64,000 nt of DNA, taken from positions 124,001 to 188,000 of the forward strand of contig NZ_CP029354.1 in assembly GCF_003130795.1 (NCBI RefSeq), read 5' to 3'. This stretch comes from Azospirillum thermophilum (lineage in GTDB: Bacteria; Pseudomonadota; Alphaproteobacteria; Azospirillales; Azospirillaceae). The translations under genes were made by a program, and so were the position numbers. This document shows, piece after piece, positions 5,293 to 41,378 of the stretch. The notes beneath the pieces were generated by a model. That model made no database searches. It was not told the origin of the DNA and worked only from the letters and a program-made list of their open reading frames with translations. The number at the start of each line of letters is the position of its first letter. Position 1 is the first letter of the stretch.

Positions 5293-6795
<1,503 letters not shown>

Positions 6796-31773: not shown

Positions 31774-32949
31774 TCAGCGCTGCACCTGCAGGACGGCGTT
31801 GCTGCGGCCGAACTGCGTCGCGGTGGCGACGTTGGCGGTGCCGGTCCGCTCCTGGGTCTGGATGATGCCGTTGTCGACGCCGACCTGGACGGCGTAGGCG
31901 GCGTTGGACAGGCCCGCCTGGGTCTGGATCACCGTGTTGTCGAAGCCGAACTGACGGGAGGAGGCCAGATTCTCCCGCCCGCCCTGGGTCTGCGTCGCCT
32001 CGTTCCTGGAACCGGCCTGCAGGATGGAGGCCTCGTTGTTTCTGCCGGTCTGGGTCTGCATCGCCTCGTTCAGGCGGCCGGTCTGCAGGATGCCGGCCTC
32101 CAGGGCGCCGCCGTCCTGAAGCTGGACCGCATCGTTGTTGTGGCCGGACTGCCGGGCGGTGGCGCGGTTGCCCTTGGCGCCGGCGTTGGTCTGTTCCTGC
32201 ACGGCGCCGTTGCCGGTACCGGTCTGGAGGATGGTCGCCTCGTGCTTGCCGGTGCCGCCCTGGGTCTGCTGGGCCTTGTTGTCGTCGCCGGACTGGACCA
32301 CGCGGGCGACGTTGCCGGCCGCGGTCTGGACCTGCCTGGACTCGTTGCGGTTGCCGGCCTGCAGGGCGATGGCCAGCTGGTCCTCGCCCTTCTGGTTCTG
32401 CGTCGACGTGTTGCGCTTGCCCGCCTGGACGGCCAGCGCCAGGTTGTCCTTCGAGCCGTTGGCCTGGGTCTGGGTCGATTTGTTGCGGTCGCCGACCTGC
32501 AGGGTGGCGGCGATGTTGCCCTGCGAGCCCTTCGACTGCTTCTGGGTGGCCTTGTTGCGGTCGCCGATCTGCACCGCGGCGGCCAGATTGTCCTGCGAGC
32601 CGTCGGCCTGGGTCTGGGTGATCGTGTTCTTCCTGCCGAACTGGCCGGCGATGGCGAGGTCGTTGCCGACGTCGGCGCCGGTCTGGCTCTGGGTGGCGCG
32701 GTTGCCCTGGCCGGCCTGCACGACATAGGCGTCGTTGAGGGTGTTCAGCTTCCCGCCGCCCTGGGTCTGCTTCGAGAGGTTCTCGGAGCCGCCCTGGACC
32801 GCGACCGCGCTGTTCACGCTGCCGGACTGGTCCTGCATGGCGTCGTTGGCATAGCCGACCTGGAGGATGTAGACGTCGTTGGCCGAACCGGCCAGCGCCG
32901 CGCCGCCCATGGCGACGAGAGCGGCGGATGCGAGAAGAATGGTGCGCAT
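31774..32949 (-). CDS. csgA: Large curlin-repeat protein, CsgA-like, with 16 repeats
   Basis: A 391-residue secreted amyloid-type protein. The signal peptide TILLASAALVAMGGAALA precedes 16 copies of QxGxxNxxxxQxQ (for example LQVGDRNKSTQTQ, VQAGKRNTSTQNQ, LQTGRLNEAMQTQ), spaced about 20-25 residues apart and filling the whole mature chain. E. coli CsgA has five repeats in 131 mature residues. The Gln/Asn ladders should stack as a beta solenoid in extracellular fibres. ATG 32949 with AAAGGTG upstream is chosen over a GTG at 32961. It belongs with csgG and csgF upstream and the CsgB-like gene downstream. Confidence 0.85.
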   Translation of the reverse strand: MRTILLASAALVAMGGAALAGSANDVYILQVGYANDAMQDQSGSVNSAVAVQGGSENLSKQTQGGGKLNTLNDAYVVQAGQGNRATQSQTGADVGNDLAIAGQFGRKNTITQTQADGSQDNLAAAVQIGDRNKATQKQSKGSQGNIAATLQVGDRNKSTQTQANGSKDNLALAVQAGKRNTSTQNQKGEDQLAIALQAGNRNESRQVQTAAGNVARVVQSGDDNKAQQTQGGTGKHEATILQTGTGNGAVQEQTNAGAKGNRATARQSGHNNDAVQLQDGGALEAGILQTGRLNEAMQTQTGRNNEASILQAGSRNEATQTQGGRENLASSRQFGFDNTVIQTQAGLSNAAYAVQVGVDNGIIQTQERTGTANVATATQFGRSNAVLQVQR

Positions 32950-33048
32950 TGTGGTTTTCACCTTTCGTCAAAAATAATCGGAGCGCCTGTCAAAGTGGAC
33001 ATCGGAGGCCGCGTCGCGATCCGGCCGGTCCTGGGCCAGATCCCCACG

Positions 33049-33067
33049 GCCGATCGGACCGATCGGC
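33049..33067. repeat. Perfect palindrome between csgG and csgA-like genes
   Basis: GCCGATCGG-A-CCGATCGGC is a 9-bp perfect inverted repeat in the 263-nt gap between the csgG stop and the csgA-like start. It could be a regulator site for a promoter specific to the fibre subunits or a transcript hairpin after csgG. No T tract follows on the minus strand. The rest of the gap shows no gene. Confidence 0.45.
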
Positions 33068-33212
33068 GCAAGCGGTGTGGAGGCCCGTGACGGGCACGGG
33101 CCGGACGCCTGGCGGGCAAGTCCCGCGGCACGGCTTCCTGGCGAAATGTCCTAACGAACGGGAGGCTGGAGGGGCCGGGGAACCGGAAACCGGTCTCCGG
33201 CCCGTCATGCGG

Positions 33213-34388
33213 TCAGGAGGCCGGCGGCGCCGGGGTTGCCGCCTCGGCCGCCCGGGTGGGAGGGGTGGTTTCCTCCGGCGCCGGCGTGGCGGAGGGGGAC
33301 ATCGGCGCGGCACCGGGAGGCAGCACGCCGGGCGGCAGCCGCTGTCCGGGCAGCGGGTTCTGTCCGCCGGGGACGATGTAGGTCGGGCCGGGCGCCGGCG
33401 CGCTGGGCTGGACCGGCGGGGTCATCCTCTCCTCGCCCTCCTCGCCCCCCTTGCCGTCGATCGGGGCGCGGCGGGGCGGCGGGGCCACCTGGATGTCCTC
33501 CGGCGTCGCCTTGATGGTGGTGACGTTGAAGACGCCGTCCCGCTCCTGCCAGTACCTGTCGATCAGCGGCTGGGCGAGCCCCATGTCCTGGAGCCGCCAG
33601 TATCCGTCGATCAGCCCCTCCACGATGAGGCTGTGCACCGCCTTCTCGACCGCCGACTTGACGGCCAGCGTCACCGGCTCGTTGGTGGTGAAGCCCGTCT
33701 CGATCTCCAGCAGGTCCTTGAAGCCGACATAGCGGAAGGCGCCGCCCTTGAGGCCCGCCGAATAGATGGTCTTGGAGACGTTGACCGACTTCAGCACCTC
33801 GCCGGTCTGGGTGGAAACGGCGCGCAGGAACACCGTCACCGTGTCCCGGCGGTAATCCGCGTTGCCCCCGACGCCGAGAAAGCGCGCGCCGAAGCCGCCG
33901 GTCAGCGTGTTGCTGTCGTATCCGATGATGCCGCCTTCCAGCATGATGCCGGCATAGGTCAGCGGCGGCAGAGGCGGCAGGCCGTTGCCGCCATACTGGT
34001 CGCGGGTCACGCGGATGAGCTGGCGTTCCTGCAGCAGGGACGGCAGCGCCGCGCGCTCCACCGTGCGGAACCAGGAACGGTTGCCGGCGCGCTCCAACGC
34101 GTTGATCAGGATCGCGGTGCCGCCCTGGGTGACGGCGCGGGAATATTCGCTGAAGCTCTCGTTCGGCTTGTTCTGGCCGGTCTGGTCCTCGAACCGGTAG
34201 ACGGCCACCGCGATCTTGTGCGCCGGCGGCGGCAGGGACTGGAGCGAGTCGAGGGCGACGGTCTTGTATTCCTGCTGCACGGGTTCGGAGAAGGCCAGTT
34301 CCGGGCGGCTGGCGCCGGGGGCGCCGGCGCAGGCCGACAGGGCGGCCGTCCCGGCGGCGGCCAGCAGAAGCTTGCGAAGCACACGCAT
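33213..34388 (-). CDS. csgG: Curli secretion channel lipoprotein CsgG with proline-rich tail
   Basis: A 391-residue outer-membrane lipoprotein forming the nonameric channel for curlin export. The lipobox is LSAC with Cys20. The CsgG core spans about residues 45-290 (KIAVAVYRFEDQTGQNK, SRAVTQGGTAILINAL, NADYRRDTVTVFLRAVST). The family is normally about 280 residues; here about 100 extra residues rich in Pro, Ala, Thr and Glu follow, and their role is unknown. csgF lies upstream in the same operon. Confidence 0.92.
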   Translation of the reverse strand: MRVLRKLLLAAAGTAALSACAGAPGASRPELAFSEPVQQEYKTVALDSLQSLPPPAHKIAVAVYRFEDQTGQNKPNESFSEYSRAVTQGGTAILINALERAGNRSWFRTVERAALPSLLQERQLIRVTRDQYGGNGLPPLPPLTYAGIMLEGGIIGYDSNTLTGGFGARFLGVGGNADYRRDTVTVFLRAVSTQTGEVLKSVNVSKTIYSAGLKGGAFRYVGFKDLLEIETGFTTNEPVTLAVKSAVEKAVHSLIVEGLIDGYWRLQDMGLAQPLIDRYWQERDGVFNVTTIKATPEDIQVAPPPRRAPIDGKGGEEGEERMTPPVQPSAPAPGPTYIVPGGQNPLPGQRLPPGVLPPGAAPMSPSATPAPEETTPPTRAAEAATPAPPAS

Positions 34389-34556
34389 GGTCGAAATCTC
34401 TCGGCGGAAGTCCGGCGTCCGGTCGCGCGCGCCCGTTGCCCGGCCCGCGCATGCGGCGGCGGGCGGGCCGTCAGGCGAAGACGCCGGGACGGATTTGCGA
34501 AGGCGCTGGGCTCGAGCAGGGATCGGGGAACGGTCCCCGGATCGCCCGCTGCCGGA

Positions 34557-35003
34557 TCACCTGCCGGCGGCGCTGCCGGCCAGCGGTACGTCGTAGACGG
34601 TCTGCGCCCCGGTATCGAGGTTCTGCAGGACGATGCGCCGGGTCTGCCCGTCGGCGTTCGGGCTGATCGAGACCTTCGAGCTGCCCAGCGTGTAGTTGCC
34701 GGAATTCTGCGACAGCACGCTGTCGATGGCGTTGCCGTTGACGCCCTGCGTCACCTGCTGCTGGAGCTGTTCGTTCAGAAGGGCCTGCGGGTTCTGCCGG
34801 TCGAGCAGGCTGAACGGATCGACGGCACTGGGATCCTTGTATTTGTCGATGGCGTTCGCGATGCCCAGCAGGTGGGAGCTGTTGAACGGATCGCCCCCGA
34901 AGGACGGGTTGACCGGCCGATAGACGAGCTGTCCCGAATGGGCCGCACCACCGGCGCAGGCCAACAGGGAGCCGATAACAATAGCGTTTCTGACCCCGGC
35001 CAT
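34557..35003 (-). CDS. csgF: Curli assembly factor CsgF
   Basis: A 148-residue exported protein. The signal peptide ends near residue 23, and the mature N-terminus GQLVYRPVNPSFGGDPFNSS is the hallmark CsgF segment that inserts into the CsgG pore. A helical linker and a C-terminal beta domain (NYTLGSSKVSISPN, RRIVLQNLDTG) follow. It is the first gene of the operon F-G-A-B. No csgE or csgD homologue is seen nearby. The gap to csgG is 168 nt. Confidence 0.9.
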   Translation of the reverse strand: MAGVRNAIVIGSLLACAGGAAHSGQLVYRPVNPSFGGDPFNSSHLLGIANAIDKYKDPSAVDPFSLLDRQNPQALLNEQLQQQVTQGVNGNAIDSVLSQNSGNYTLGSSKVSISPNADGQTRRIVLQNLDTGAQTVYDVPLAGSAAGR

Positions 35004-35343: not shown

Positions 35344-36627
35344 TCACGGGAAGGTGTTGCGCCCGCGCAGCATCGCATTCCAGTAGAGGTGCGGGAAAAG
35401 ACGGGTCTTGGCGATCCAGGCGCTGCGACGGGGCTTCGTGCTGTCCCACGGCAGGGAGGGCATCAGCTTGCCATTGTAGCCGAATTCGGCGAGCACCACC
35501 TTGCCGTGCTCGACGGTCAGGGGACAGGATCCGTACCCGTCATAGACGGCACAGGGGCTTCGCCCGTCCAGCACCGACAGCACGTTGAGGACCACGACCG
35601 GCGCCTGTCTGCGCACGGCGGCGGCGGTTTTCGCGTTGGGTGCCGAGCATGCGTCGCCCAATCCGAAGATCGTCCCGTAGCGGGTGTGCTGCAGGGTGTG
35701 GTGGTCGACCTCCACCCACCCCGCGGCGTTGACCAGCGGGCTGGCGCGCACCGCGTCCGGCGTCGTCTGCGGCGGGGTCACGTGAAGGAGATCGAAGCTC
35801 TCCTCCCGCAGGGAGACGGCGCCGCCGTCGCCCCGGACCTCGAACCAGGCCTTGCGCGCCGGACCATCGACCTTTCTCAGGACGGACTGGAAGGTGATCC
35901 GGGCGCCGTAGCGCCGGACATAGCCTTCCAGGCTGGGGACATAGTCCGGAACACCGAACAGCACCGCGTTGGCGTTGTGGAACCGGACGTCGATGGCGTC
36001 GAGCACCCCCCGCCTCTCCCACGTGCTGCAGGACAGGTAGAGCGCCTTTTGCGGTGCGCCGGCGCATTTGATCGGCATCTCGGGCTGGGTGAACAGCGCC
36101 CGCCCTCCGCGCAGCGCGCGCACCAGCGCCCAGGTGTAGGGCGCCGTGTCGATCCGGTAGTTGGAGGTGACGCCGTTGCGCCCCAGGGTCTCGGCGAGCC
36201 CTTCGATGGCGGTCCAGTCCAGCTTGATGCCGGTGCAGACGACCAGCACCCGGTAGCGGATGCGGTCGCCGCCCTGCAGAACCACCGTGGCGTGTTCCGG
36301 CTCGAAGGCGGTTGCCGTGTTCCGGATCCAGGTCACGCCGTCCGGAAGCAGGGCCGCCTGCGGCCGCACGGTGCGCCGCACGTCCAGGACGCCGGCGCCG
36401 ACCAGCGTCCATCCCGGCTGGTAATGGTGTTCGGCCCTCGGCTCGACCATGACGATCGAACAGTCCGGGCGCCGGCGCCGCAGGCCGGCCGCCACGGCGA
36501 CGCCGGCACAGCCGCCGCCGACGACGAGCACGTCGCAGGAGATCGTGGGCGCCCGTCCCGCCGCGCGGCCGGGTGCGGGATGGCCGGCGCAGGGCGCCGC
36601 GCCGTCCCCGGAAGCGATCCTGTCCAT
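35344..36627 (-). CDS. sqr: Sulfide:quinone oxidoreductase, type II (SQRDL-like)
   Basis: A 427-residue flavoprotein that oxidises sulfide, or a persulfide acceptor reaction, and reduces quinone at the membrane. The FAD dinucleotide loop is VVGGGCAGVAVA (about residues 34-45). The type II signature PIKCAGAPQKALYLS carries the first redox Cys, and the second is in GLGDACSAPNAKTAAAV. The C-terminal amphipathic region HLYWNAMLRGRNTF would anchor it. It is the last gene of a six-gene operon, 6 nt after the MFS gene. In this setting it could consume sulfide formed or used by the cysteine-synthase-fold enzyme. Confidence 0.9.
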   Translation of the reverse strand: MDRIASGDGAAPCAGHPAPGRAAGRAPTISCDVLVVGGGCAGVAVAAGLRRRRPDCSIVMVEPRAEHHYQPGWTLVGAGVLDVRRTVRPQAALLPDGVTWIRNTATAFEPEHATVVLQGGDRIRYRVLVVCTGIKLDWTAIEGLAETLGRNGVTSNYRIDTAPYTWALVRALRGGRALFTQPEMPIKCAGAPQKALYLSCSTWERRGVLDAIDVRFHNANAVLFGVPDYVPSLEGYVRRYGARITFQSVLRKVDGPARKAWFEVRGDGGAVSLREESFDLLHVTPPQTTPDAVRASPLVNAAGWVEVDHHTLQHTRYGTIFGLGDACSAPNAKTAAAVRRQAPVVVLNVLSVLDGRSPCAVYDGYGSCPLTVEHGKVVLAEFGYNGKLMPSLPWDSTKPRRSAWIAKTRLFPHLYWNAMLRGRNTFP

Positions 36628-36633
36628 GCCGCG

Positions 36634-37869
36634 TCACGCCGACTGGAGTTGCGGGGCCCGTGCCACGGCCGGGGTCTCGCGGATCGGCAGGTTCAGCAGC
36701 GCCGCCGCAAAGGCGAGCACGACATCGGCATACCACATCCAGTCGAAGCTCCCGAACCGCGCGACGGCCAGGCCGCCGAGCCAGGCGCCGAGGAACCCGC
36801 CGATCTGGTGGAACATCAGCGCCATGCCGAACAGGGTGCCGATCCGGCTGCTCCCGAACAGCTTGGCGATCACGCCGATGGTCGGCGGCACCGTCGCGAG
36901 CCAGGTCAGCCCCAGCCCCGCCGCGAAGATGTAGAAGGTGAGCTCGTCCTTCGGCCCGACGAGGTAGAGCGAGACGAAGAGCCCGCGCAGGCCGTAGATC
37001 CAGAACAGGATGTACCTGTTCTCGAAACGCTGGCTGAGGAGCCCGGCCAGAAAGCTGCCCGCGATGTTGGTCAGTCCGATGATGGACAGCGCCCAGCTGG
37101 CGACGCTCGCGGACTGGCCGCAGAGCCGGACCTCGCCCGGCATGTGGGTCATCAGGAAGGCGATGTGGAAGCCGCAGGTGAAGAAGCCGGCCGTGAGCAG
37201 GAGATAGCTCGGAACCGTCAGGGCGTGGCGGATGGACGCCAGGGCGCCCCCGCCGGCCCCCGGCAGCAGGTCGCCGCCCGCCTCCCCGCCGGCCTCCCGC
37301 GGCTGTCCGCGCAGGGCCAGCGCCAGGGGCAGCGCGGCCAGGGCCACGGCCGCCAGCGACCACATCGCGCCCGCCCATCCCAGCACGACGATCAGCTTCT
37401 GCGTCACCGGCGGAAACAGGAACTGGCCGATGGATCCGCCGGTGCTGATGACGTTCGCCGCCATCGGCCGCTTCGCCGCCGGCAGCCGCCGGGCGGTGGC
37501 GCCGATCAGGACCGAGAAGCTGCCGATCCCGGTGCCGACCGCCGGCAGGATGCCGAGCGCCAGGACGACCGCCCACACGCCGTCGACCAGCGGCAGCATG
37601 GCGTTGCCCAGCACCAGGAGAAGCATCCCGGCCGCGAGCACCCGCCCGGCCCCGTAACGGTCGGCCGCCGCGCCGGCGACCGGCTGGATCGCGCCCCAGA
37701 TGAACTGGGCCATCGCCAGGGCGAGGCTGATGACGGAAATGTCGAGCCCGGTCGCGAAGATCAGATCGGGGACGAACAGGCCCATCGTCTGCCGCGATCC
37801 CATGGTGACGAGCATCACGGTTCCCGCCGCCACCGCGACCATGCTCCAGCGCGCCGTGTCTGTGGCCAT
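36634..37869 (-). CDS. MFS transporter
   Basis: A 411-residue protein with 12 predicted membrane helices and the major facilitator motif A-like loop (AADRYGAGRVLAAG, between helices 2 and 3). The first helix region reads MGSRQTMGLFVPDLIFATG. It resembles the OFA/monocarboxylate-like branch, but no substrate can be assigned. ATG 37869 has GGGAACGGGG upstream. It is placed between the methyltransferase and sqr, so it may export the product of this operon. Confidence 0.83.
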   Translation of the reverse strand: MATDTARWSMVAVAAGTVMLVTMGSRQTMGLFVPDLIFATGLDISVISLALAMAQFIWGAIQPVAGAAADRYGAGRVLAAGMLLLVLGNAMLPLVDGVWAVVLALGILPAVGTGIGSFSVLIGATARRLPAAKRPMAANVISTGGSIGQFLFPPVTQKLIVVLGWAGAMWSLAAVALAALPLALALRGQPREAGGEAGGDLLPGAGGGALASIRHALTVPSYLLLTAGFFTCGFHIAFLMTHMPGEVRLCGQSASVASWALSIIGLTNIAGSFLAGLLSQRFENRYILFWIYGLRGLFVSLYLVGPKDELTFYIFAAGLGLTWLATVPPTIGVIAKLFGSSRIGTLFGMALMFHQIGGFLGAWLGGLAVARFGSFDWMWYADVVLAFAAALLNLPIRETPAVARAPQLQSA

Positions 37870-37910
37870 GATCCCCGTTCCCTTCACTGCCGGTGCATGA
37901 CGGTGCGGCA

Positions 37911-38753
37911 TCACAGCCGCCGCGCGGCGACCACGTGGGCCGCCATCGGAATGCGGATGACGCCGTCGCGCAGGTACCGCCTCTCGACGTCCGCCGCCAT
38001 GTCGCTGCGGATGCGCCGGGCGGTCGCCTCGTCCTGCTCGCGCAGCCGCGCGCCCGACCGGACCGACGCGGTGTGCTCGGCCCAGTAGAGGTGGTCGGCG
38101 CTGGGAACCTGCCAGTCGACGCGGACGGTGCGGGTCGAGACGCTCTCCGCATCGAAGCCGTTCGAGCGCAGCAGCCCGATCCGGGCGCGGTCGTCGCACA
38201 GTTCGAGGTAGGACGGCCCCCGCGGCACCCGGCTGTCCCGCGCGGCGTGGGCGTCGAGCGCGCGTTCCAGGACGCCGGCCCCTTCGTTCAGCGCGCCGTC
38301 GGCCCAGATGGTCAGGGCGAGCCGCCCCCCCGGCCGCAGCACGCGCGCGATCTCGGAGAAGGCCCGCTGGAGGTCGGCGAAATGCTGGACGCCGAAATTC
38401 ACCACGGCGGCGTCGAACTCCCCGTCCTCCAGCGGCAGGCGATGGACGTCGCCCTGGAGAAACCTGACCTCCGGATAGCGCGCCCGCGCCCGGTCGATCA
38501 TGCTCGCGGAGAAGTCGAGCCCCGTCGCGGCGGCTCCGCCGGAGCGCGCGGCGTCCGCCGCATAGCCGAGGCCGGTCGCGAGGTCGAGAAGACGCACCCC
38601 GTCCAGCGGGGCGACGGCCTCGATGAGGGCCGGAACGAAGGCGTTGGTCAGGCCTTCCCAGCAGTCGCCGTAAAGCCCGGAAACGGACTCCCAGCCGTCA
38701 TGTTCGAACCGGTGGAACTCCTTGAGTTCATCCGGCAGGAAATCGAGCGTCAT
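37911..38753 (-). CDS. SAM-dependent class I methyltransferase (UbiE-like)
   Basis: A 280-residue enzyme. SAM-binding motif I is LLDLATGLGYAADAA (residues about 54-68), the acidic motif II is TGLDFSASMIDRAR, and motif III is FDAAVVNFGVQHF. Motif IV RVLRPGGRLALTIWA follows. The C-terminal 110 residues form a substrate cap. Acceptor unknown; membership of a cysteine/O-acetylserine operon suggests a small amino-acid or thiol acceptor, but this is inference. It lies 21 nt after the cysteine-synthase-like gene. Confidence 0.85.
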   Translation of the reverse strand: MTLDFLPDELKEFHRFEHDGWESVSGLYGDCWEGLTNAFVPALIEAVAPLDGVRLLDLATGLGYAADAARSGGAAATGLDFSASMIDRARARYPEVRFLQGDVHRLPLEDGEFDAAVVNFGVQHFADLQRAFSEIARVLRPGGRLALTIWADGALNEGAGVLERALDAHAARDSRVPRGPSYLELCDDRARIGLLRSNGFDAESVSTRTVRVDWQVPSADHLYWAEHTASVRSGARLREQDEATARRIRSDMAADVERRYLRDGVIRIPMAAHVVAARRL

Positions 38754-38774
38754 GCAAAGATCCCGGAATTATCG

Positions 38775-39701
38775 TCAGTGTTTGAAGTACCACAGCCCAT
38801 GGTCGTAGATGATCGCCAGGATCTTGTGCGTCTTGGTGGCCCGGTGCGACAGCGACTGCGCGACGTGCAGGCACGCGGCGGAGCTGTTGCCGACGAAGTA
38901 TCCGGTGCGGGCCGCGAACTCCCGCTGGGTCGCGGCCATCTCCTCGGCGCTGACGGGGGCCGCATGGCTGACCATGCTCCAGTCGACCATGGGCGGCGCC
39001 ACCCCGACGGACGCCCCTTCCAGACGGTGGTCGACGAAGACGCCGTTGCGCGAATCGCATCCCGCGGGCTCCACCAGCACCACCTCGACGTCGTAGCCGG
39101 CCGTCCGCAGCGCGCGCGCGACGCCCGACAGGCAGGCGCCGGTGCCGGCGCAGGAGACGAAGGTCAGCGACGTCACCTCGTCCCGCGCGGCGAGCTGGCC
39201 GGCGATCTCCGGTCCGGTCTCGAACTCGTGCGCCGCCAGACTGGCCGGATTGTTGAACTGGTCGGTGTAATGGTACTGCCTGCCCAGCTCCTTGCCCCTG
39301 GCCAGGTGCCACTCCACCACCTCGCGCGGGGTGGCGCCGGCCTCCAGCATCGGGATGCCGATGAGCCTGGCCCCGAACATCTCCAGGCAGCGGCGCTTGA
39401 CCGGACTGAAGCCGAGGCCCACCGCCAGCTCGACCGGCACGCCGATGTCGCGGCAGGCGACGGCCAGGCCGAAGCCGAAGTTGCCCCCGGTCTTCTCGAT
39501 CACCGTGGTGACGCCGGGAACGATCTCGCCCCGGTCGAGCGCCCGCTGAACGATGTGCCTCGCGGCACGGACCTTGTGGCTGCCTCCCGGATTGTTGCAT
39601 TCCAGCTTGACGAGCACCCCGGGGAGCAATTCGAGGAGTGGCGTCGCGACGGGCGCGGCCGTCGGCCGGCCCGTCGGCGGATTCTGTTCGACTGCGCGCA
39701 T
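38775..39701 (-). CDS. Divergent PLP enzyme of the cysteine synthase (fold type II) family
   Basis: A 308-residue enzyme. The PLP lysine is in NNPGGSHKVRAAR, where standard CysK has NPGGSVKDR. The substrate loop usually reading TSGNTG is KTGGNFGFG. The phosphate-binding loop GTGACLSG replaces GTGGT. The C-terminal serine element VGNSSAAC is present. The fold and beta-replacement chemistry are therefore likely kept, with an altered amino-acid-carboxylate loop that argues against ordinary cysteine synthase specificity. O-acetylserine from the co-encoded CysE is the natural donor substrate; the nucleophile is unknown. ATG 39701 has GGGAAGG upstream. Confidence 0.82.
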   Translation of the reverse strand: MRAVEQNPPTGRPTAAPVATPLLELLPGVLVKLECNNPGGSHKVRAARHIVQRALDRGEIVPGVTTVIEKTGGNFGFGLAVACRDIGVPVELAVGLGFSPVKRRCLEMFGARLIGIPMLEAGATPREVVEWHLARGKELGRQYHYTDQFNNPASLAAHEFETGPEIAGQLAARDEVTSLTFVSCAGTGACLSGVARALRTAGYDVEVVLVEPAGCDSRNGVFVDHRLEGASVGVAPPMVDWSMVSHAAPVSAEEMAATQREFAARTGYFVGNSSAACLHVAQSLSHRATKTHKILAIIYDHGLWYFKH

Positions 39702-39793
39702 TCGCGGCCTTCCCTATCGCGATCGATGGCGTCGGCACGGCCCCGCACCGGCCATCGCGGCCCGGAGCCGGTGCCGGGGAACCGAGGGTCTGC

Positions 39794-40555
39794 TCAGTGG
39801 TATCGGCCCAGGTCGTAGCGGGCCTCGGCGAAGCTGCAGGAGATGCGCTCCTTGCCGGCGCCGAGGTTCTTTCTCTTCACCTGCAGCGGCCCGACCGCCC
39901 GGGTGTTGTCGAGGTGCGTTCCGCCGCAGGGGATGACATGCCCCTCGCATTCCCAGTAGCGGGCGTCCGGGACGGTGTCGTGGGAGTAGGTCCTGATGTC
40001 GCTCGCCCGCTCGACGAAGCCGTTGGCGAGGGTCTCGATGGTCCTGATCTCGGTCTCCGTGAAGCGGTCCCGGACCCGGAAGTCGAACCGGGCGCCGTCC
40101 GGCTTGATGTGGCATCCGATCACGTCGAGGTCGGCGCGCACCATGCCGATGGCGATATAGAGGAGGTGCGAGGCGGTGTGGCTCAGCGACAGCCGGCTGC
40201 GCCGGTCGGCGTCGATCTCGATTTCGGCGGCCTCGCCGGCGGCGAGACGGCTCAACGCGGCGACGTCGTCCGGATGGACGATGTGCTGGATCACCCCGCC
40301 GGCCTCGATGTCGGGGACGTCCGGCAGGTTGACGGGGCTGCCGTAGAGCTTCCGCGCGCCGATGAACCGCAGGACCTCGCCGCCGGCCGTGCGGATGACG
40401 CCGCAATCGGCCTCCTGCCCGCCGCCCTCGGGATAGGCGACCGTCGCGTCCAGCTCGACATGGTCGGCGCCGGTCTTGACCACGGCGGCCGTGCAGCGCT
40501 TCCGGTAGGCATCCTCGTAGTAGAGCTTGCGGGTGGCTCGGCTGAGCATCGTCAT
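39794..40555 (-). CDS. alaX: AlaX-type alanyl-tRNA editing protein
   Basis: A 253-residue free-standing editing domain related to the C-terminal half of AlaRS. It keeps the YPEGGGQ loop (about residue 41) and the zinc motifs HTASHLL (HxxxH) and CGGTHLDNT (CxxxH). The length fits the AlaX-L/II group, which deacylates mischarged Ser- or Gly-tRNA(Ala). Here it is embedded in an operon with serine acetyltransferase and a cysteine-synthase-like enzyme. It may thus remove a non-protein amino acid made by this operon, or excess Ser, from tRNA. It is 92 nt upstream of the PLP gene. Confidence 0.88.
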   Translation of the reverse strand: MTMLSRATRKLYYEDAYRKRCTAAVVKTGADHVELDATVAYPEGGGQEADCGVIRTAGGEVLRFIGARKLYGSPVNLPDVPDIEAGGVIQHIVHPDDVAALSRLAAGEAAEIEIDADRRSRLSLSHTASHLLYIAIGMVRADLDVIGCHIKPDGARFDFRVRDRFTETEIRTIETLANGFVERASDIRTYSHDTVPDARYWECEGHVIPCGGTHLDNTRAVGPLQVKRKNLGAGKERISCSFAEARYDLGRYH

Positions 40556-40661
40556 CTGGTCGATCCTGGTTTTCTGGGAACAATCGGGAAAGCCGGTCCG
40601 GTGCCCGGCGCCCGGAGTGGGCGGCCCGGGGGCAGGCGGGCGGGCGGGCGGCTGCGGCCGG

Positions 40662-41378
40662 TCAGCCCTGTATCGGTCCCGGCGCGGCCGGCCGCGCGGC
40701 GGGCATCTGGAAGACGCCGCGCTCGGTGCGGGTGATCTGGAGCGCCGTCTTCAGCATGACGGTCGAGCCCGAGGGGATGTCCTCCTTGATCACGCAGTGC
40801 GGCCCGATGAAGACGTCGTCGCCGATGGTGACCGGGCCGAAGATCCGGGAGAAGGCGCCGATCTGGACGCGGTTGCCGATGGTCGGATGCCGCTTCGCCG
40901 CGGGGTTGCCGGCGATGCCGGTCGCCCCGAGCGTGACGCTGCCGAGCACGTAGCAGTCGTCGCCGATCCGGGTGGTCTCGCCGATCACGGTTCCATAGCC
41001 GTGGTCGAGGATGAAGCGCAGGCCGATGCTGCAGCGGTGGTGGATTTCCGCCCCCGACAGCAGCTTTCCCCGGCAGGAGATCAGGTGCGCGTTGGCGTCG
41101 AGCTCTTCCGCCGTCGCCAGATCCCGGCATTCCGGAGAGGTCGCCAGCGCGTGCGCCAGCCGGTAGTGCAGCACGGCCCGGTAGGAGGAATAGGCGTGGG
41201 CGACCCGGTGGGAATCATTGTTCGCCGCGGGATCCTTCTTCGTGAAGACATCCAGGTCGCCGCAGGCGACGTTGACGACGGACTCGAACACCCTGTGTGA
41301 AATCACGCCTTTCGTGAAGGCCGGAGTACAGCAGTCGTACAGAGCCGCTTGCAGCAAGTTTCTGATGGATTCTTCCAT
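40662..41378 (-). CDS. cysE: Serine O-acetyltransferase CysE
   Basis: A 238-residue hexapeptide-repeat acetyltransferase that makes O-acetylserine from serine and acetyl-CoA. The helical N-terminal domain (residues 1-120) is followed by the left-handed beta helix. Active-site segments are IHHRCSIG and DHGYGTVIGETT, then KRHPTIGN and the hexapeptides VQIGAF, VTIGDD, VFIGPH. The C-terminal tail is short and lacks the usual Ile end that binds cysteine synthase; it ends APGPIQG. ATG 41378 is chosen; a TTG 51 nt upstream keeps the frame open. It is the first gene of the six-gene operon. Confidence 0.9.
   Translation of the reverse strand: MEESIRNLLQAALYDCCTPAFTKGVISHRVFESVVNVACGDLDVFTKKDPAANNDSHRVAHAYSSYRAVLHYRLAHALATSPECRDLATAEELDANAHLISCRGKLLSGAEIHHRCSIGLRFILDHGYGTVIGETTRIGDDCYVLGSVTLGATGIAGNPAAKRHPTIGNRVQIGAFSRIFGPVTIGDDVFIGPHCVIKEDIPSGSTVMLKTALQITRTERGVFQMPAARPAAPGPIQG

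What the first reader, a model, noticed from the sequence alone, without database searches (positions are those of the whole stretch)
35344..41378. Unusual six-gene operon: CysE, AlaX, cysteine-synthase-like enzyme, methyltransferase, MFS transporter and SQR
Seen: six minus-strand genes with short spacers (6, 41, 21, 92 and 106 nt) starting with serine acetyltransferase and ending with sulfide:quinone oxidoreductase. Known: CysE makes O-acetylserine, cysteine-synthase folds replace the acetyl group with a nucleophile, AlaX clears mischarged tRNA, SQR oxidises sulfide. Inference: the set could make, methylate and export an O-acetylserine-derived amino acid, with AlaX protecting translation; or it could be a sulfide/cysteine homeostasis module. 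I do not recognise this combination as a described pathway.
Basis: partly seen in the sequence, partly recalled or inferred. Interest (0 to 1): 0.78.

Follow-up and report, generated by a model that had tools for sequence, protein, structure and literature searches.

The report
Operon for an exported O-acetylserine-derived amino acid
Six neighbouring genes in a bacterium look like a small factory that turns O-acetylserine into an unusual amino acid, pumps it out and protects the cell's own protein synthesis from it; the same core set recurs in distant bacteria, but the product has not been shown.

Summary
In detail: six minus-strand genes (cysE, alaX, CysK-like PLP enzyme, methyltransferase, MFS transporter, sulfide:quinone oxidoreductase) with gaps of 106, 92, 21, 41 and 6 nt. 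The full six-gene set was seen only here. A core inside it is conserved: cysE, alaX, a transporter and this PLP enzyme lie together in Burkholderiales, Pseudomonas, Kushneria, Dyella and Vibrio (of 33 loci: cysE 30, alaX 29, transporter 31). The methyltransferase recurs in two P. cichorii loci and a Salmonella plasmid, each with an AzlC amino-acid exporter in place of the usual MFS. The PLP enzyme belongs to a distinct family (KTGG[N/S]FG where CysK has TSGNTG), and the genome has an ordinary CysK and CysEs besides. Best reading: biosynthesis and export of a non-protein amino acid made from O-acetylserine, AlaX clearing it from tRNA(Ala), the methyltransferase tailoring it here. The SQR looks intact but is not part of the conserved core. 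The nucleophile, hence the product, is not determined; diaminopropionate, methylated to BMAA in this variant, is one candidate and is unproven. Ten full-text searches of an open-licence library gave no paper recognisably describing the cluster.

The parts
40662..41378 (-). serine O-acetyltransferase-like gene (cysE paralogue), first gene; predicted to make O-acetylserine
   Evidence: TIGR01172 126 bits, under cut-off; three over-cut-off CysE genes elsewhere in the genome; homologue near the PLP gene in 30 of 33 loci
39794..40555 (-). alaX: free-standing alanyl-tRNA editing protein, HTASH and CGGTH motifs present
   Evidence: near the PLP gene in 29 of 33 loci
38775..39701 (-). fold-type II PLP enzyme, distant relative of CysK/CysM, with EKTGGNFG loop; predicted beta-substitution on O-acetylserine
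37911..38753 (-). class I SAM methyltransferase, relative of those in the P. cichorii (45%) and Salmonella plasmid (33%) clusters; predicted tailoring enzyme
36634..37869 (-). MFS transporter, no significant blastp match to the MFS of the other clusters (best E 0.04); predicted exporter
35344..36627 (-). sulfide:quinone oxidoreductase-like flavoprotein with cysteines in KCAGAP and GYGSCPL; not part of the conserved core

Best explanation
A small biosynthetic gene cluster for an exported non-protein amino acid. CysE makes O-acetylserine (inferred from family). The specialised CysK-like PLP enzyme replaces the acetyl group with a nucleophile other than, or besides, sulfide (inferred from fold and altered substrate loop). 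In this genome a methyltransferase methylates the product (inferred) and an MFS carrier exports it (inferred). AlaX hydrolyses the product, or serine piled up by the pathway, from tRNA(Ala), protecting the producer (inferred). Shown here: the genes, their linkage across bacteria, presence of the catalytic motifs, and that the usual MFS is replaced in the methyltransferase-positive loci. In the flank clustering no further gene family was shared across lineages apart from a MocR-type regulator (most flank genes were not annotated), so the nucleophile is probably a common small metabolite. Ammonia (giving 2,3-diaminopropionate) or sulfide (giving cysteine) would leave a side chain that a methyltransferase could modify. 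The SQR would be a local addition, for instance keeping sulfide from competing in the beta-substitution; that step is a guess.
For: Linkage: of 33 loci found through the PLP protein alone, cysE is present in 30, alaX in 29, the usual MFS in 29, AzlC in 2. Two of the three without cysE (L021, L022) start at a contig end inside the cluster; the third, L024, is told under evidence against. In L027 cysE/alaX, alaX/MFS and MFS/PLP each overlap by 4 bp. The transporter slot holds different exporters: MFS, AzlCD (P. cichorii; AzlC in Salmonella), EamA/DMT (Xenorhabdus plasmid), another MFS (window). The four methyltransferase-positive loci lack the usual MFS. The loop KTGG[N/S]FG replaces CysK's PTSGNTG: the ten profile-found loci not in the first scan have TGG-F in 10 of 10, three with N and seven with S. 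The genome's own CysK is 58% identical to E. coli CysK with the normal loop. The Salmonella and Xenorhabdus PLPs have TGGNTG and share a CD....G.F..H..E stretch (the stretch is in 23 of 28 rows of A1). The Xenorhabdus plasmid also carries alaX, a full valine-tRNA ligase and an L-serine ammonia-lyase. A coronamic acid cluster on a P. tremae plasmid ends in an alanyl-tRNA editing gene and a LysE exporter, an independent case of AlaX beside a non-protein amino acid pathway.
Against: No product is known and no chemistry is shown. The genome has a second pair, PRK10717 'cysteine synthase A' then AlaX then 3-mercaptopyruvate sulfurtransferase, with no exporter seen among the ORFs read there, so AlaX beside a CysK relative need not mean self-protection. 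alaX is absent in L035 and L043 although flanks are present; L024 has 3.4 kb upstream of the PLP gene without any core gene, its downstream side being cut off. In L043 the PLP frame has an internal stop. The SQR and this MFS have no conserved link. The first-scan loci were recruited largely by the peptide IEKTGGNF (in 32 of 33), so their loop is not independent evidence, and outside that set the loop's Asn is often Ser. The Salmonella/Xenorhabdus PLPs group with the main family at 92/82 only, with unlike composition and two long branches in the tree, and score better against CysK than against the window enzyme. One of three methyltransferase relatives at 32-36% also sits beside an EamA transporter but no cysE, alaX or PLP gene of this kind was found near any of the three, so the methyltransferase family is not confined to such clusters.
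Confidence: 0.66

Rival explanations
1. Cysteine or serine overflow module: the PLP enzyme is a cysteine synthase, the transporter exports cysteine or O-acetylserine, AlaX clears Ser- or Cys-tRNA(Ala), and SQR removes excess sulfide.
For: PLP fold and sequence nearest to cysteine synthases; SQR with both cysteine motifs in the operon; own PRK10717-AlaX-sulfurtransferase neighbourhood.
Against: Genome already has CysK and three over-cut-off CysE genes; substrate loop differs from CysK and CysM; SQR in 0 of 33 and 0 of 18 other loci; the methyltransferase, and the extra ValRS on the Xenorhabdus plasmid, are not needed for cysteine.
Confidence: 0.2
2. A special case of the best explanation: the product is 2,3-diaminopropionate in the four-gene form and beta-N-methylamino-alanine (BMAA) in the methyltransferase form, by cysteine-synthase-like amination of O-acetylserine and then N-methylation, as Brenner and colleagues proposed for a cycad.
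For: The gene set matches that proposal (cysteine-synthase-like protein, then methyltransferase; passages of PMC9414260); the same passages report that AlaRS charges BMAA, which would explain AlaX.
Against: No special affinity to the diaminopropionate synthase SbnA (133.5 bits against a cut-off of 349.95; cysKM scores higher); the methyltransferase substrate is unknown; the same passages report that added BMAA did not inhibit heterotrophic bacteria.
Confidence: 0.14
3. Chance neighbours: alaX and cysE next to unrelated genes.
For: This MFS and the SQR are linked nowhere else seen; PLP gene in 1 of 82 genomes of the host's family at E 1e-60.
Against: Core linkage across beta- and gammaproteobacteria at 48-66% PLP identity.
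Confidence: 0.04

Closest known systems
Hypothetical BMAA route of Brenner et al. (as summarised in passages of PMC9414260)
   Same: cysteine-synthase-like enzyme plus methyltransferase acting on a beta-substituted alanine; product charged by AlaRS
   Different: a hypothesis from cycad ESTs; no CysE, AlaX or exporter in the passages read
D-cycloserine pathway (DcsE/DcsD, recalled; O-ureido-L-serine synthase 3x43 is a hit)
   Same: dedicated serine acetyltransferase plus CysK-like enzyme using a non-sulfur nucleophile, plus exporter (recalled)
   Different: the further Dcs enzymes are not among the six genes; they were not searched for in the genome
Coronamic acid cluster of Pseudomonas (P. tremae plasmid)
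   Same: ends with an alanyl-tRNA editing protein followed by a LysE-family exporter
   Different: cma-type genes (names from the record; chemistry recalled); no cysE or CysK-like gene in the stretch shown
SbnA 2,3-diaminopropionate synthesis
   Same: CysK-fold enzyme for a beta-amino alanine
   Different: window enzyme 133.5 bits against a cut-off of 349.95; the genome has a separate over-cut-off SbnA-family gene
PRK10717 cysteine synthase - AlaX - sulfurtransferase neighbourhood (own genome)
   Same: CysK relative next to AlaX
   Different: no cysE or methyltransferase seen beside it; TAGNTG loop; AlaX closer to AlaXM (231.9 bits, also under its cut-off of 300)

Membership tests
O-acetylserine sulfhydrylase (CysK/CysM equivalog) | score over curated NCBIfam cut-off | tested here: not met
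   168.9 vs 344.15 (cysKM), 150 vs 350.95 (cysK), 138.7 vs 394.2 (cysM)
O-acetylserine sulfhydrylase (CysK/CysM equivalog) | TSGNTG substrate loop (meaning of the motif recalled) | tested here: not met
   window has TGGNFG; E. coli CysK, CysM and own CysK have TSGNTG. In relatives TGG[N/S]FG; first-scan rows are biased towards IEKTGGNF by the search pattern
O-acetylserine sulfhydrylase (CysK/CysM equivalog) | makes cysteine from O-acetylserine and sulfide | not testable with these tools
   needs an enzyme assay
Fold-type II PLP enzymes (PALP) | PALP domain with Schiff-base lysine | tested here: met
   162.8 bits vs 35; K43 aligned with the CysK lysine and invariant in A1; model pLDDT 90, TM 0.71-0.82 to the cysteine synthases listed
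2,3-diaminopropionate synthase SbnA | score over TIGR03945 cut-off | tested here: not met
   133.5 vs 349.95; own SbnA-family gene scores 363.3
AlaX trans-editing proteins | SAD domain with HxxxH and CxxxH metal site (site recalled) | tested here: met
   HTASH and CGGTH in the window protein; of 27 near-full-length rows, window included, 27 have HxxxH and 26 CGGTH (L025 CGGLH); three short rows L019, L021, L032 left out; tRNA_SAD 24.4 bits vs cut-off 24
AlaX trans-editing proteins | AlaXM equivalog score | tested here: not met
   118.6 vs 300; the genome's other AlaX 231.9, also under
Sulfide:quinone oxidoreductase | cysteine pair and FAD-type fold | tested here: met
   KCAGAP and GYGSCPL aligned with two DUF442-type SQR homologues; catalytic role of the cysteines recalled
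Sulfide:quinone oxidoreductase | score over the SQR_III_seleno cut-off | tested here: not met
   193.1 vs 525
BMAA biosynthesis | demonstrated product | not testable with these tools
   no metabolite data; the passages read give only hypotheses
Conserved six-gene operon | all six families co-located elsewhere | tested here: not met
   SQR 0 of 33 and 0 of 18, this MFS 0 of 33 and 0 of 18

The most novel reading that the evidence does not exclude
This is a bacterial operon for BMAA-type amino acids: CysE and the TGG-type PLP enzyme make 2,3-diaminopropionate from O-acetylserine and ammonia, the methyltransferase converts it to beta-N-methylamino-alanine, the carrier exports it, and AlaX deacylates the mischarged tRNA(Ala). 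As far as I know (recall, plus the ten text searches) it would be the first gene set for BMAA and the first trans-editing factor shown to act as the immunity gene of a biosynthetic cluster.
Probability: 0.12. Interest if true: 0.92.

Novelty: new variant of a known kind. Interest (0 to 1): 0.62.

Why it matters
It points to a scattered family of very small amino-acid clusters in which a tRNA proofreading enzyme appears to be the immunity gene. That gives a search handle (AlaX beside an exporter and a PLP enzyme) for non-protein amino acids, and makes a long-open question, whether a cysteine-synthase-like enzyme plus a methyltransferase can make BMAA, testable with purified enzymes.

Tried and rejected
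Plasmid search with the window PLP at E 1e-40 gave no match; the Salmonella plasmid cluster came up only through the methyltransferase. The Salmonella cluster DNA had no match in E. coli genomes. Methyltransferase relatives at E 1e-45 in 3 of 398 drawn genomes besides the window's own had no cysE, alaX or PLP gene of this kind nearby. Rfam and promoter scans of the region gave nothing useful. The Neisseria and Sinorhizobium MFS neighbours were uninformative. SbnA membership was rejected on score. GC content inside the operon is that of its surroundings, with dips at both ends (35.0-36.0 and 41.0-42.0 kb), so composition does not mark it as foreign. That all six genes form a conserved unit was rejected. 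My first statement that TGGNFG is invariant in the family was withdrawn on checking: the first scan selected for that peptide, and 7 of 10 independent loci have TGGSFG.

Ten text searches were made in an open-licence library. 'AlaX' with O-acetylserine and 'biosynthetic gene cluster' gave 0 papers; 'alanyl-tRNA editing protein' with Pseudomonas gave 0; the others were seen as listings. Passages were read in PMC9414260 and PMC8762117 (not relevant); no paper was read whole.
Full report
OBSERVATION. They are divergent relatives.

THE GENOME ALREADY HAS THE HOUSEKEEPING SET. Elsewhere it carries a CysK 58% identical to E. coli CysK with the normal TSGNTG loop, three CysE genes over the cut-off, a 903-aa frame with the strongest SAD match, which I take to be AlaRS, and another AlaX. 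The window genes are extra copies. At E 1e-60 the PLP gene occurs in 1 of 82 genomes of the host's family, its own.

CONSERVED CORE. A scan for the PLP protein gave 33 loci in beta- and gammaproteobacteria, among them Paraburkholderia, Caballeronia, Rugamonas, Verminephrobacter, Roseateles, Dyella, Kushneria, Vibrio, Advenella, Candidatus Endobugula and many Pseudomonas. Within 7 kb of the PLP gene, cysE is found in 30 of 33, alaX in 29, one MFS family in 29, AzlC in 2, methyltransferase in 2, a MocR-type regulator in 14, SQR in 0 and the window's MFS type in 0. L021 and L022 begin at a contig end inside the cluster. L024 has 3.4 kb of upstream sequence without any core gene and is cut off downstream. 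L035 and L043 lack alaX although the flanks are there. L045 has only a short MFS match. A draw of 398 genomes of the phylum gave 2 (one is the window's own), and 390 of the order of the other gave 2. So the cluster is rare and scattered.

THE METHYLTRANSFERASE VARIANT. In two P. cichorii loci the order is cysE, methyltransferase, AzlC, AzlD, alaX, PLP. A Salmonella serovar India plasmid has alaX divergent from PLP, cysE, methyltransferase, AzlC. These methyltransferases are 45% (P. cichorii) and 33% (Salmonella) identical to the window's and share the SVRSGA and PMAA stretches. None of the four methyltransferase-positive loci has the usual MFS; the window's own MFS matches it only at E 0.04. 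I read this as an exporter changed together with its cargo, an inference from three lineages.

THE PLP ENZYME. CysK, CysM and own CysK have TSGNTG, own SbnA SSGNLG, the PRK10717 enzyme TAGNTG. The window family has KTGGNFG in 28 of 28 rows of A1, but that count is biased: the first scan used IEKTGGNF as one of its patterns, and 32 of 33 loci contain it. In the ten loci found by profile and not by the first scan, TGG and F are kept in 10 of 10 while the Asn is kept in 3 and is Ser in 7. A change at an otherwise conserved loop residue makes plain CysK chemistry less likely, but does not tell the nucleophile. The Salmonella and Xenorhabdus enzymes have TGGNTG and share a CD....G.F..H..E stretch with the family. 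The tree puts them beside it with 92/82 support, short of strong, with warnings on composition and long branches, and by blastp they score higher against CysK than against the window enzyme. The model is confident (pLDDT 90) and matches cysteine synthases, with beta-cyanoalanine and O-ureidoserine synthases among the hits.

ALAX AS SELF-PROTECTION. The cluster AlaX keeps its HxxxH and CGGTH motifs. A Xenorhabdus plasmid with a PLP-cysE-EamA set also carries alaX, an entire valine-tRNA ligase and an L-serine ammonia-lyase; the ligase is 78% identical to the E. coli enzyme over the 504 residues compared. A coronamic acid cluster on a P. tremae plasmid ends in an alanyl-tRNA editing gene followed by a LysE exporter. 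Both fit AlaX as an immunity gene. Against this, the window's own genome has PRK10717 - AlaX - sulfurtransferase with no exporter seen beside it, so AlaX can also go with ordinary cysteine-type metabolism.

THE SQR. It keeps both cysteine motifs and is 59-60% identical to the two SQR proteins aligned, which are fused to DUF442 and lie with an MBL-fold hydrolase and transporter genes; that these are sulfide-detoxification operons is recalled. It starts 6 nt after the MFS gene and is probably co-transcribed, but was in none of the other clusters. In the genus, 4 of 45 genomes have a match at E 1e-60, the three besides the window's at 36-38% identity.

PRODUCT. Not determined. In the flank clustering no further family was shared across lineages besides the regulator, though most flank genes were not annotated; so a common nucleophile is likely. 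The methyltransferase is added to an otherwise similar set, so the primary product should have a methylatable group. Diaminopropionate (methylated: BMAA) and cysteine (methylated: S-methylcysteine) fit; cyanoalanine fits less. The review PMC9414260 (passages only) says that a cysteine-synthase-like protein plus a methyltransferase was proposed for BMAA and that AlaRS charges BMAA; it also says that added BMAA did not inhibit heterotrophic bacteria. I give the full BMAA reading 0.12.

VERDICT. Real, with a conserved core, and not found described in the texts searched; a new variant of the known kind 'biosynthetic cluster for a non-protein amino acid with self-resistance'.

Noticed in passing
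L075 (Xenorhabdus sp. TH1 plasmid NZ_CP147736.1) 34-9059: Plasmid with alaX, full valine-tRNA ligase, L-serine ammonia-lyase, EamA exporter, cysE and TGGN-type PLP enzyme; looks like a cluster with two translation-level immunity genes.
   Followed up: partly
L123 (P. tremae plasmid NZ_CP066271.1) 1958-8224: Coronamic acid gene cluster ends with an alanyl-tRNA editing protein and a LysE-family exporter.
   Followed up: partly
L055 (Salmonella serovar India plasmid NZ_CP022016.1) 3642-7514: alaX divergent from PLP-cysE-methyltransferase-AzlC on a large plasmid, close to cobalamin genes (an L,D-transpeptidase gene lies between).
   Followed up: partly
L060-L062, L064-L067 (unnamed Pseudomonas-genus genomes): Seven PLP enzymes of this family have Ser in place of the loop Asn (TGGSFG).
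   Followed up: partly
L110 6222-8913 (own genome C2): PRK10717 cysteine synthase, AlaX and 3-mercaptopyruvate sulfurtransferase genes in a row, a second CysK-relative/AlaX pair.
   Followed up: partly
G000:C3:341953-342840 (L098): Own genome carries an over-cut-off SbnA-family diaminopropionate synthase gene on the same contig as the window.
   Followed up: no
L124 (Cetobacterium somerae plasmid NZ_CP092523.1) 5443-7747: A gene annotated as PLP-dependent aminotransferase family (possibly a MocR regulator) divergent from a lone AlaX-like gene 31% identical to the window AlaX; perhaps an orphan resistance gene.
   Followed up: no
L054 (Comamonas endophytica plasmid) 6001-6759: AlaX relative 49% identical to the window's, with one internal stop and no cysE or PLP gene annotated in the stretch.
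   Followed up: no
window 31774-35003: Minus-strand genes that read like curlin repeats and CsgG/CsgF-type curli genes (recognised by eye only).
   Followed up: no
L032 (Candidatus Endobugula sertula): A bryozoan symbiont fragment with MFS and PLP (51%) genes of the core; its cysE and alaX matches are only partial.
   Followed up: no
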